From positions 1-23,189 of IMG/VR virus record IMGVR_UViG_3300042868_003471: a DNA stretch of 23,189 nucleotides; one strand, 5' to 3'. The translations under genes and the position numbers were made by a program. The notes under the pieces were generated by a model. That model was not told where the DNA came from. It worked only from the letters and a program-made list of their open reading frames with translations, and searched no databases. This document shows positions 1,656 to 22,921 of the stretch, in pieces; position 1 is the first letter of the stretch, and the number at the start of each line of letters is the position of its first letter. The DNA comes from a virus.

Positions 1656-2075
1656 ATGGTCACTTCACGAGATTGTTTTGCCAAGTATGGCGCACCGGAT
1701 GCAGCGAATCCATGCATGACATTGTGGGATGTTCCGGCATCGCTTGAGATAGGATTCATCCCGAAACGAATCTACTGCAACAAGGATATGGTGATACCTC
1801 TGAGCATCGCATTCGGGAATCTCATCAACCGGGGATTCGTGGCTGAACTCAAGACATGGGATGGTTGCTTCAATATCCGGAAAATCCGGGGAGGCAATGC
1901 GATGTCGCTGCACTCATGGGGAGTCGCAGTCGATGTCAATGCCTTCTCGAATGGACTCGGAAAAGAACCGACTCTCTCTTCGGGATTCGTGAAATGCTTC
2001 ACCGATGCCGGGTTCGATTGGGGAGGAGTTTGGCAGCGCAAGGATGGAATGCATTTCCAACTTGCAAAAATTTAG
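1656..2075 (+). CDS. Endolysin, peptidase M15-like (peptidoglycan endopeptidase)
   Basis: This 139-residue protein has the zinc-site pattern of the M15 / VanY-like peptidase family. SLHSWGVAVD at residues 84-93 gives the His86 and Asp93 ligands. DGMHFQ near the end gives Asp130 as the likely catalytic acid/base (DxxH) and His133 as the third ligand. WGGVW at 122-126 is the usual Trp/Gly stretch before it. The family cuts peptide cross-links or stems in peptidoglycan, so the protein probably lyses the host wall late in infection. It has no signal peptide or wall-binding domain and is close to a bare catalytic domain. It is read opposite to most genes and is divergent from three small membrane proteins that may supply holin and spanin functions. 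There is no obvious ribosome-binding site. The exact bond cut cannot be told from sequence. Confidence 0.88.
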   Translation: MVTSRDCFAKYGAPDAANPCMTLWDVPASLEIGFIPKRIYCNKDMVIPLSIAFGNLINRGFVAELKTWDGCFNIRKIRGGNAMSLHSWGVAVDVNAFSNGLGKEPTLSSGFVKCFTDAGFDWGGVWQRKDGMHFQLAKI

Positions 2076-2090
2076 AACTTTTTTTGCATC

Positions 2091-2139
2091 ATATTTTGCA
2101 GATTCGAAAAGTTAGTGTTCCTTCGCACTCACTAACCAA
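2091..2139 (+). repeat. 49-bp leader repeat, copy A (probable promoter/5' leader)
   Basis: This stretch matches the minus-strand stretch 22887-22839 at 42 of 49 positions without gaps. Both copies end exactly 10 bases before an ATG (2150 and 22828). The left end reads ATATTTTGCAG and the last 15 bases GCACTCACTAACCAA are identical. A T-rich run followed by GC lies just upstream of both. In this copy GTTAGTG (2111-2117) and CACTAAC (2130-2136) form a perfect 7-bp inverted repeat; the other copy does not keep this pairing fully. Identical spacing to the start codon suggests a shared promoter and leader. Confidence 0.75.
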
Positions 2140-2149
2140 TTGAATCAAT

Positions 2150-4623: not shown

Positions 4624-4658
4624 GGGGTCAAATTTACAACTTATGAATCATTTGTCAT

Positions 4659-4687
4659 TCTGCGATTTCATTGCTATTTTTCGCAGA
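4659..4687. promoter_or_regulatory. Inverted repeat in divergent control region
   Basis: TCTGCGA at 4659-4665 and TCGCAGA at 4681-4687 form a perfect 7-bp inverted repeat with a 15-base spacer. The arms lie 22 bases centre to centre, about two turns of B-DNA. The repeat lies in the 79-base gap between the MuF gene (minus) and the nuclease gene (plus). It overlaps a possible plus-strand -7 box, TATTTTTC (4675-4682), which has a TTTG (4651-4654) 20 bases upstream. It could be an operator or part of paired promoters. Confidence 0.4.
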
Positions 4688-4691
4688 TTTA
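4684..4691 (-). promoter_or_regulatory. Putative -7 box TAAATCTG for the MuF gene
   Basis: The minus strand reads TAAATCTG then CGAAAAAT, one base off the TAnnTTTG-CGAAAA pattern seen before 749 and 17450. A transcript starting near 4677 would have a leader of about 55 bases before the ATG at 4623. That leader contains a seven-codon reading frame (M-K-S-Q-N-D-K, stop) beginning 12 bases after the box. The terminator after the portal gene makes a separate promoter for MuF likely. Confidence 0.35.
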
Positions 4692-5261: not shown

Positions 5262-7067
5262 TTATCCTTCCGGCATCAATGGCACGAGGCCGGAGTTGAT
5301 TTCGGCCAACTTCGCATCTGCCAACGCATCGACATCCATGCGTTGCTCTTCGAGATTCTTCTTGAGCCACATCGGGTCTCCCTCGCTGAGTTGCATGATG
5401 AATGAGGTCAGATTCACCGACAATACGAAATCTCGCTTTGTGCATCCTCCTTGCGCCACGAGCATCACCTTCTCATCGGTGGTTTTGAATGGTAATGGGT
5501 CAAGCGCATTGTTGACTTTCAAGAAATACTTTTGAGGCGAATTCTCGCCATACAATTTCTCGACATAGTCTGATTCCAATCCGTGAACGATGATGGGATT
5601 GTACGATGATTTACGGGCCTCTGAGAGCATCATTGAGATTGCTGCTGATGTCAGCACATCGAAGTCGGTCGGAATGGTCACCTTCGGCAAAGCATTCATC
5701 ACCTTCTCTTCATTCATCAACCCGGAGTCGAAAAGCGACTTGTATCGCTGACCCATGATGTGGAAACATACTCGCTCGTAAACATCAACGAGATGAACGC
5801 ATACCGAGAAACAAAATGTGTTCAATTCCTTCCGGTCATATTCTTTTGAGATGCCGGATTGATTGCCGGGAATCTGACCAAGGATTTCGAGACCGATGGC
5901 CTTGAGTCCTTGGAATTCCTTGTTCATGATGTCATCTTGAAATAACTTGACCGAATCGGTCGGTCTCTCGATGTATCCGGCCGGAGGAATCGGTGGAATC
6001 GTTGGATTCGGGTTGATTGCGGAGACCCGGTCGATGTTGATTTCGAGAAGTCCGAACGGACTCGTGGATGCTCTCCCCGACCCACTACATTTGCCACAAG
6101 AGACTTTCTCATGCTTGGCATTGTATGACTCTCCCGTGCCGTTGCAAGTCTTACACGGACTCAACTTCAATGCCCACTTCTGAGGCAGCGCATGAACTGC
6201 ATATAAGATGTTCAAGTCATCGGTTCGATACAAGACCTCGTTCCATGCCGGAAGACACGGAGCAAGAACCGAATCATAAAGGAGATGACCTTCCTCCTCC
6301 TCGTATATCACATTCCCGGTCTTAATCACCGGGAGTCGAGGAAAATCGAATGCGATGAAATAGACCTCGAACGGGTCGATTTCACGAATCTCCTTGTATT
6401 GTCGGAAAAGCAGCAATCCGAACTTTGTGACTGCCATGTACTGACACCATTCGTGGCCGTTGGCATCCTTCCATTCTTCGACCTCGAAAAGCACCCATTC
6501 TTCCTCCTCATAAATCAAATCCTCGGTCTCAATGATTTGTGGATATGGCCGTGAGAAATCGAGAGTCGGAGTTTCACGAGGATTCTCCACGAACTCATCG
6601 AATCGAGGCAGAACCACCACAATGGAGTTCGCATCTTGCAGATATGTCTTGAGGAATAGATTGAATGTCCATGTCTCAAGGTTTGGGATTCGTGGCATCC
6701 CGGAAGTCACATACGTTTTTAACGTATTATCAACATTGCCAACTCGCTCTGCGATTCCGGTCTTGGTGTAGTCGGTTTCCCACCGGATTTTGAAGTCATC
6801 CGCTTGTTGGATTTTTTGGAGGAAGTTGTAAACTCGCCCGGTTAAGGTCTTCGTTGTTGGTTGCCAACGATGCCTCCGGTATTCCTTCATCCATCCCTCC
6901 TCAGATGGATGTTGAGCATGGAGTAGTTTGTCGGGGTATTTATCCTCGAAGTGCCATTCGAGTTGCTCGGCCTTCCACCGGGCCTCCCGAATATATTCAG
7001 ATTTGCCTCCACGGATTTCATCATCCATGAGTGCTTTGATAATTTCCCCGACAACTTGCTCCATCAT
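5262..7067 (-). CDS. Portal protein with an internal CxxCxGxG zinc motif
   Basis: This is a 601-residue protein. I call it portal from its size, acidic-aromatic character, and the helical region about 375-440. That region runs from FQDDIMNKEFQGLKAIG through GNQSGISKEYDRKELN, which resembles the stem/crown-side helices of portals. It also adjoins the MuF-type gene, the usual portal partner. The portal forms the dodecameric ring at one head vertex through which terminase pumps DNA. Unusually, residues 305-312 read CKTCNGTG and 324-331 CGKCSGSG, a DnaJ-like pair of CxxCxGxG repeats expected to bind one zinc. The ATG at 7067 is followed by a second ATG one codon later, and either may be used. It is the last gene before the terminator at 5201-5232. 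Other large head-connector proteins remain possible. Confidence 0.72.
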   Translation of the reverse strand: MMEQVVGEIIKALMDDEIRGGKSEYIREARWKAEQLEWHFEDKYPDKLLHAQHPSEEGWMKEYRRHRWQPTTKTLTGRVYNFLQKIQQADDFKIRWETDYTKTGIAERVGNVDNTLKTYVTSGMPRIPNLETWTFNLFLKTYLQDANSIVVVLPRFDEFVENPRETPTLDFSRPYPQIIETEDLIYEEEEWVLFEVEEWKDANGHEWCQYMAVTKFGLLLFRQYKEIREIDPFEVYFIAFDFPRLPVIKTGNVIYEEEEGHLLYDSVLAPCLPAWNEVLYRTDDLNILYAVHALPQKWALKLSPCKTCNGTGESYNAKHEKVSCGKCSGSGRASTSPFGLLEINIDRVSAINPNPTIPPIPPAGYIERPTDSVKLFQDDIMNKEFQGLKAIGLEILGQIPGNQSGISKEYDRKELNTFCFSVCVHLVDVYERVCFHIMGQRYKSLFDSGLMNEEKVMNALPKVTIPTDFDVLTSAAISMMLSEARKSSYNPIIVHGLESDYVEKLYGENSPQKYFLKVNNALDPLPFKTTDEKVMLVAQGGCTKRDFVLSVNLTSFIMQLSEGDPMWLKKNLEEQRMDVDALADAKLAEINSGLVPLMPEG

Positions 7068-22306: not shown

Positions 22307-22828
22307 TTACTTGATAAGGTAGCGATAGTGAGGTCTTACGATTTCGCCTTCTGCGATGATGGTGAATGCTCTCACTTTCTTTGTGCCATCGGTGATGGTG
22401 CATTCGAAGTTTACACCTTGAAACCCGGAGGTCACTTGGATTGACTCAGCATTCAGATTCTTGGCCTCTACACGAAAAGCCAATTTCTCGATGCTCTGAA
22501 TGTAGTGGGTTTCGGCATTCTGAATTTCTTTTGCGATGAATGCTTCACGACCTTTGCGAACTTGAGATTTTGCATTTCTCTCCATGTTGTAATGAGTTTT
22601 TGCATCTTTTGAATTGTAAAAACTTAATGGGAACAATGTATATTCTTTTCCATATTGATTCACAATTCTTGGAGTGATACCAAAATAAGAACAATATTCA
22701 GCGACATTCCATTTTGCAATTTTTTCGATACGAGTGAACTCTCTTTCTGCGTATTCTTGAGTTTTTGCCATGAATGTTGCCTTGAATTCGGCAGTTTGAG
22801 CGAGGAGGATGTTTTTTAGTGTTTCCAT
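22307..22828 (-). CDS. Hypothetical protein with its own conserved leader
   Basis: This is a 173-residue protein. The ATG at 22828 is fixed by its leader, a 49-bp repeat ending 10 bases upstream. The protein is helical and charged in its first half (METLKNILLAQTAEFKATFM, REFTRIEKIAKWNVAEYCSY) and has an AKSQVRKGREAFIAKEIQNA helix in the middle (about 86-105). The C-terminal 50 residues are beta-rich (GVNFECTITDGTKKVRAFTI). No family is recognised. The DNA is A/T-rich compared with the terminase genes. A shared leader with the gene at 2150 points to common timing. Its place before the packaging genes suggests an early or DNA-related role, by inference only. Confidence 0.7.
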   Translation of the reverse strand: METLKNILLAQTAEFKATFMAKTQEYAEREFTRIEKIAKWNVAEYCSYFGITPRIVNQYGKEYTLFPLSFYNSKDAKTHYNMERNAKSQVRKGREAFIAKEIQNAETHYIQSIEKLAFRVEAKNLNAESIQVTSGFQGVNFECTITDGTKKVRAFTIIAEGEIVRPHYRYLIK

Positions 22829-22838
22829 TTTTTTGCTG

Positions 22839-22887
22839 TTGGTTAGTGAGTGCAAAGCAATACCAAGTTTCCGAAACTGCAAAATAT
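22839..22887 (-). repeat. 49-bp leader repeat, copy B (probable promoter/5' leader)
   Basis: Read on the minus strand from 22887 down, this stretch matches 2091-2139 with seven mismatches and no gaps (positions 12, 17, 21, 24, 27, 30 and 34 of the alignment). It ends 10 bases before the ATG at 22828, as the other copy does before 2150. ACTTTTTTTGC lies just upstream. The perfect inverted repeat of copy A is only partly kept; TTGGT and ACCAA could pair here instead. Confidence 0.75.
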
Positions 22888-22921
22888 CGGAGCAAAAAAA
22901 GTGAAATATTTTTCGATTATT

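What the first reader, a model, noticed from the sequence alone, without database searches (positions are those of the whole stretch)
2091..2139. A 49-bp leader shared by two genes at opposite ends and on opposite strands
2091-2139 (plus) and 22887-22839 (minus) agree at 42 of 49 positions with no gaps, both end exactly 10 bases before an ATG, and both follow a T run plus GC. The downstream proteins are unrelated. The ATATTTTGCAG start looks like a -7 type element, shifted by one from TAnnTTTG. A weaker relative, TATTTTTCGCAGATT, lies at 4675-4689 before the nuclease gene. This suggests a second promoter or leader class, perhaps early genes, with a translational or repressor-binding role for the identical last 15 bases.
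Basis: partly seen in the sequence, partly recalled or inferred. Interest (0 to 1): 0.7.

Follow-up and report, generated by a model that had tools for sequence, protein, structure and literature searches.

The report
Phage promoter with start-linked leader
Two unrelated genes of an uncultured phage, probably of Flavobacterium-like bacteria, share a roughly 90-base control unit (a host-style promoter plus a short fixed leader just before the start codon), and related phages carry the same unit in front of many different small genes.

Summary
In detail: 42 of 49 positions match, and the next-best 49-base match in the window is 34. The shared unit is longer than reported, about 90 nt. It recurs at 20 sites (19 full, one weaker) in 10 contigs counting the window, before about ten unrelated genes of unknown function.

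Anatomy: an A/T block; TATTTTGCAG; exactly 19 nt after its TTTG, a TAnnTTTG-like box; then CACTAACCAA and an A-rich stretch before ATG. Flavobacterium phage 1/32 has a repeated promoter of the same geometry, with a perfect -7, before a 39%-identical homologue of one of the genes and at the head of its exonuclease operon.

CACTAACCAA is a separate module. It shifts 8 nt relative to the promoter and also occurs without it inside operons, yet stays 7-16 nt before ATG, which suggests an mRNA-level start element. It is not enriched in 297 genomes of a Flavobacterium's phylum. The closest known kind is the SAS/ESAS of Cluster K mycobacteriophages. The 4675 site is a different, ordinary promoter. Transcription starts and any translational effect are untested.

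The parts
2066..2084 (+). A/T block, predicted -64 to -46, at the position of an UP element
   Evidence: conserved in 17 distinct cassettes, mostly 1.2-2 bits per position; alignment; function inferred
2092..2101 (+). TATTTTGCAG box; TTTG at 2095-2098 read as the -33 element
   Evidence: TTTTGCAG was part of the search pattern, so its invariance is partly by construction
2118..2125 (+). -7-like box TTCCTTCG (4/6 match to TAnnTTTG), 19 nt after TTTG
   Evidence: not used in the search; spacing peak at 19 nt, mean 4.71/6; 0 of 20000 shuffles reach it
2130..2139 (+). CACTAACCAA leader element; predicted transcript start at 2130/2131
   Evidence: start inferred from the 4-5 nt -7-to-TSS distance in PMC6847099
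2150..2635 (+). gene behind the first copy, 161 aa, unknown function
   Evidence: no Pfam or PHROG match; same cassette before its orthologues in G001, G003 and c019928
22894..22912 (-). A/T block of the second copy
22877..22886 (-). TATTTTGCAG box; TTTG at 22883-22880 read as -33
22853..22860 (-). -7-like box TTGCTTTG (5/6)
22839..22848 (-). CACTAACCAA leader element
22307..22828 (-). gene behind the second copy, 173 aa, unknown function, upstream of the ParB-like and terminase genes
   Evidence: homologues in G001, G002, G003, G005 and F132_63 of Flavobacterium phage 1/32, 39% over full length

Best explanation
The repeat is a two-part expression cassette. Part one is a phage promoter for the host's primary Bacteroidetes sigma factor: A/T block, TTTG at -33 inside TATTTTGCAG, an exact 19-nt spacer, and a TAnnTTTG-like -7 box. 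It starts an mRNA with a short leader of roughly 20-30 nt. Part two is CACTAACCAA, a start-associated mRNA element 7-16 nt before ATG that helps translation begin in a host without Shine-Dalgarno signals. The cassette gives small accessory genes and some operons, probably early ones, their own transcription, independent of the structural operon. The extra conservation at -38 to -20 suggests that a further factor also reads the site. Shown: recurrence, geometry, modularity. Inferred: sigma use, start site, early timing, translational effect, extra factor.
For: Recurrence: 19 full cassettes plus one weaker site in 10 contigs. Geometry: the match to TAnnTTTG peaks at spacing 19 (4.71/6; next best 2.65), with no indel between the boxes in 16 aligned copies, while just downstream there is an 8-nt indel and a variable ATG distance; 0 of 20000 shuffles reach the observed -7 match. 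TTTG (-33) / TAnnTTTG (-7) is the described sigma-ABfr consensus (PMC7366714, PMC6847099). Parallel: Flavobacterium phage 1/32 has four copies of TTG-N19/20-TAnnTTTG, one before a homologue of the gene at 22828 and one at the head of its exonuclease operon. Modularity: the leader occurs without the promoter inside operons at G001 27424+, c000456 903+ and G003 21248-. Early role: the cassette at G002 11238+ and the weaker one at G001 22642- head the operons of a shared non-structural protein (74% identical, phrog_862), whereas structural genes have a bare TAnnTTTG near ATG without TTTG at N19.
Against: Many copies have T instead of A at -11 (TTGCTTTG, TTCCTTCG), a position reported as nearly invariant in F. 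johnsoniae (PMC6847099). TATTTTGC also fits the alternative TAnnTTGY box of F. psychrophilum (PMC9723704), and G002 11238 and G001 22642 read TAATTTTG, a perfect -7, at the upstream position. The cassette matrix does not detect the 1/32 promoters, so that parallel rests on geometry and gene homology. The copies share ancestry, so shuffles overstate significance. In the window the cassette stands upstream of the packaging genes, so 'early only' is not established. There are no RNA data and the host is not identified.
Confidence: 0.68

Rival explanations
1. ATATTTTGCAG is itself the -7 box (alternative TAnnTTGY type), so transcription starts just after it and the next 45-60 nt, including the TTTGC box and CACTAACCAA, are an mRNA leader.
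For: TATTTTGC fits TAnnTTGY (PMC9723704); the region upstream is AT-rich; G002 11238 and G001 22642 read TAATTTTG there; a separate lineage (G006, c002048) keeps TATTTTGCA and the leader without a TAnnTTTG box at N19.
Against: It does not explain the rigid 19-nt spacing or why very different 8-mers all match TAnnTTTG. Phage 1/32 has a perfect TAAATTTG at the same spacing and no TA at the upstream position.
Confidence: 0.17
2. Tandem overlapping promoters: both boxes act as -7 elements, giving two starts with a shared leader.
For: Both boxes are conserved in all copies.
Against: No start-site data; it needs two promoters where one explains the pattern.
Confidence: 0.1
3. The leader is a structured RNA or attenuator in which CACTAACCAA pairs with upstream sequence.
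For: Alleles before the gene at 2150 can pair GTTAGTG with CACTAAC (z -1.3 to -1.9), and two other copies fold better than shuffles by a different pairing.
Against: Most copies fold no better than shuffles and the pairing is not kept across the family; no Rfam match in the window.
Confidence: 0.04
4. A recent chance duplication with no function.
For: It would explain two similar copies in one contig.
Against: Copies persist before orthologous and unrelated genes in many contigs, with conserved boxes and variable intervals.
Confidence: 0.01

Closest known systems
[quoted passage not shown]
   Same: A short conserved sequence next to start codons of a subset of phage genes, several copies per genome; a longer upstream element accompanies only some copies; copies follow gene families; absent or very rare in the host genomes examined.
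   Different: SAS is GGGATAGGAGCCC with a Shine-Dalgarno core, 11-19 copies per genome; here the element is CACTAACCAA with no Shine-Dalgarno character, at most about five copies per contig, and the upstream part is promoter-like rather than a pair of 17-bp inverted repeats.
Bacteroidetes sigma-ABfr promoter, TTTG (-33) / TAnnTTTG (-7) (PMC7366714, PMC6847099)
   Same: Two boxes at a matching spacing and a plausible short leader.
   Different: Conservation extends far beyond the two boxes, and A-11 is often T.
Repeated promoters of Flavobacterium sp. phage 1/32 (KJ018210)
   Same: Repeated A-rich block, TTGC, N19/20, TAnnTTTG, before a homologous gene and an exonuclease operon.
   Different: Different bases in the spacer and no CACTAACCAA leader.
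F. psychrophilum SM5 promoter motif TAnnTTGY (PMC9723704)
   Same: TATTTTGC matches the motif.
   Different: No second rigidly spaced box is described for SM5 in the passages read.

Membership tests
sigma-ABfr promoter | TAnnTTTG -7 box | tested here: inconclusive
   4-6 of 6 positions in all 17 distinct copies, two exact; A-11 often T
sigma-ABfr promoter | TTTG at about -33 | tested here: met
   TTTG 19 nt before the -7-like box in all distinct copies; TTTTGCAG was part of the search pattern
sigma-ABfr promoter | transcription start 4-5 nt after the -7 box | not testable with these tools
   needs 5'-end mapping
SAS/ESAS of Cluster K mycobacteriophages | sequence GGGATAGGAGCCC | tested here: not met
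   the element here is CACTAACCAA
SAS/ESAS of Cluster K mycobacteriophages | repeated element placed just before start codons of a subset of genes | tested here: met
   25 of 28 CTAACCAA occurrences in 12 contigs lie 7-16 nt before an ATG; two of these look like chance matches in coding sequence
SAS/ESAS of Cluster K mycobacteriophages | absent or rare in the host | tested here: inconclusive
   not above the reversed-pattern control in 297 genomes of a Flavobacterium's phylum (compared by eye); the true host is unknown
SM5 alternative sigma promoter | TAnnTTGY box at -12 to -5 from the start | tested here: inconclusive
   TATTTTGC matches by sequence; start site unknown
Structured RNA leader | base-paired structure conserved across copies | tested here: not met
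   folding of 17 leaders; no Rfam match in the window

The most novel reading that the evidence does not exclude
CACTAACCAA is a phage-specific translation start element for ribosomes that do not use Shine-Dalgarno pairing, shared by otherwise unrelated phages and read by the ribosome, by protein bS1 or by a phage factor. Suggestive only: several unrelated viral contigs carry two or more ACTAACCAA-ATG leaders with no reversed-control hits.
Probability: 0.3. Interest if true: 0.7.

Novelty: new variant of a known kind. Interest (0 to 1): 0.42.

Why it matters
I found little published on how phages of Bacteroidetes switch on their genes, or how they mark start codons in hosts that lack Shine-Dalgarno sequences. 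This cassette gives a compact, testable promoter and leader, separates one gene class from the structural-gene class, and flags small unknown genes by their control region.

Tried and rejected
Exact scan for the 15-mer: 28 stretches, mostly chance; six contigs have a similar surrounding sequence, one of them (G006) a separate lineage. Leader hairpin: not general. Leader as a normal host feature: not supported. 4675 as a third copy: rejected. Relatives among deposited phages by DNA: none. Widened leader scan: 30 stretches against 8 for one permuted control; apart from the window's relatives and one further group, the rest is near the control level, so spread across phages is only suggestive. 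Literature searches on promoters of Bacteroidetes phages found nothing specific.

Full report
Check. The two stretches agree at 42 of 49 positions, ungapped, and both end 10 nt before an ATG. No other ungapped 49-base pair in the window exceeds 34 matches. The repeat finder extends the unit to 87 nt at 71%. The two proteins behind the copies are unrelated.

Relatives. A scan of viral contigs for the last 15 bases gave 28 stretches; in six contigs the surroundings are similar too, one of them (G006) belonging to a separate lineage. Further patterns added more. Counting the window there are 19 promoter-plus-leader sites in 10 contigs, plus one weaker site at G001 22642 that lacks the leader (the c002048 site printed there belongs to the separate lineage and is not counted). 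The search patterns required TTTTGCAG and the leader, so those bases look invariant partly by construction. A position matrix applied without those requirements found the 19 sites and the weak one and nothing else: full cassettes score 55 or more, the weak site 32.5, the best reversed-sequence control 0.7. The first genes downstream fall into about ten unrelated families. Nine of these were scanned, together with the c002048 gene, and only one weak PHROG match of unknown function appeared.

Anatomy. Seventeen distinct cassettes (effective number 10.7) show an A/T block at -64 to -46, TATTTTGCAG at -38 to -29, conserved TTC and AAA up to -20, a variable stretch at -19 to -13, and then a box with conserved T-12, T-7, T-6 and G-5 followed by C. 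This box was not part of the search patterns. The match to TAnnTTTG peaks at exactly 19 nt from TTTG (mean 4.71 of 6; every other spacing 2.65 or less), and none of 20000 shuffles reaches the observed value (shared ancestry makes this optimistic). In the alignment there is no indel from TATTTTGCAG through this box; immediately downstream an 8-nt indel and variable distances to ATG appear. Rigid up to the -7 box and flexible after it is what a promoter followed by a leader should look like. The described sigma-ABfr promoter has TTTG at -33 and TAnnTTTG at -7 (PMC7366714, PMC6847099), and starts lie 4-5 nt after the box (PMC6847099). This predicts mRNAs beginning at CACTAACCAA in the shorter leader type, as in the window, and about 9 nt before it in the longer type.

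Parallel in a cultured phage. The 173-aa protein behind the second copy has a full-length 39% homologue, F132_63, in Flavobacterium sp. phage 1/32. Upstream of that gene lies AAAAAAAAACTTGCGGGAATGAAAAATAGTTGTAAATTTGC: TTG, 19 nt, perfect TAAATTTG. Similar units (19 or 20 nt) precede the genes at 5907, 8641 and 33994, the last heading the exonuclease operon. The window's cassette matrix does not detect these sites, so the parallel is one of geometry and gene context.

Leader as a separate module. CTAACCAA occurs 28 times in the 12 contigs studied. Twenty-five of these lie 7-16 nt before an ATG, of which two (G001 3604-, G004 6202-) look like chance matches in coding sequence. The leader also occurs before genes inside operons without the promoter (G001 27424+, c000456 903+, G003 21248-). 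It is not above the reversed-pattern control in 297 genomes drawn from the phylum of a Flavobacterium genome; this was judged by eye, and the first 40 rows hold about 35 hits against about 59 control hits. Some unrelated viral contigs carry two or more such leaders with no reversed-control hits, but they were picked for having one, and a permuted-pattern control shows that single hits elsewhere are near chance level.

Gene classes. Structural genes in these phages have a bare TAnnTTTG close to ATG with no TTTG at 19 nt, sometimes right after a terminator-like T run. Cassettes stand before small unknown genes, several on the strand opposite to their structural neighbours. In G002, and in weaker form in G001, one heads the operon of a shared non-structural protein (74% identical, phrog_862). 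In the window and in G001 one stands upstream of the ParB-like and terminase genes. This suits early or accessory genes but does not prove timing.

Doubt. The upstream box also fits the F. psychrophilum SM5 motif TAnnTTGY (PMC9723704), and many copies have T at -11. The upstream-start and two-start readings remain open until 5' ends are mapped. The host is inferred to be a Flavobacterium-like bacterium only from the promoter type and the phage 1/32 homologue.

Comparison. The closest kind is the SAS/ESAS system of Cluster K mycobacteriophages (PMC3203893): a short sequence at start codons, an extended upstream part in only some copies, and rarity in the host. The bases differ, and here the upstream part is promoter-like, so this works like that kind but is not a member; I call it a new variant of a known kind.

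Noticed in passing
window 17475-, 21771-, 4636-, 1623-; phage 1/32 before genes 16722 and 30513: A second promoter class: TAnnTTTG 5-20 nt before ATG, without TTTG at N19, sometimes directly after a terminator-like hairpin and T run, before structural and other genes.
   Followed up: partly
window 4651-4682 (+): Ordinary TTTG-N20-TATTTTTC promoter before the PDDEXK nuclease gene, conserved in G002 and with changes in G003.
   Followed up: yes
G001 near 27122-27149 (+), G002 near 6702-6675 (-), and the equivalents in c001608 and c000456: In the longer leader type an ATG at the predicted transcript start is in frame with the gene (ATGTTTAACACTAACCAA...ATG), so a leaderless, N-terminally extended product is possible (read from sequences).
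   Followed up: no
window 2103-2144 and orthologues: Only the alleles before the 161-aa gene can form a hairpin pairing GTTAGTG with CACTAAC; the orthologue in c019928 keeps the stem with a changed base.
   Followed up: partly
L318, L320, L321, L322, L324, L326, L335, L337: A viral group with almost no detectable protein similarity to the window has CGGCTGGGGACACAGCCACTAACCAAGGGA before different genes, a second leader cassette sharing the same core.
   Followed up: partly
G006 1682- and c002048 726+: A further lineage has TATTTTGCA, CTACCCGAACC and the same ACTAACCAA leader but no TAnnTTTG box at N19.
   Followed up: partly
window 22828- compared with G001 10867-: The 173-aa gene and its cassette sit at the head of the packaging side in the window but after the 601-aa structural gene in G001, so gene and control region appear to move together.
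   Followed up: partly
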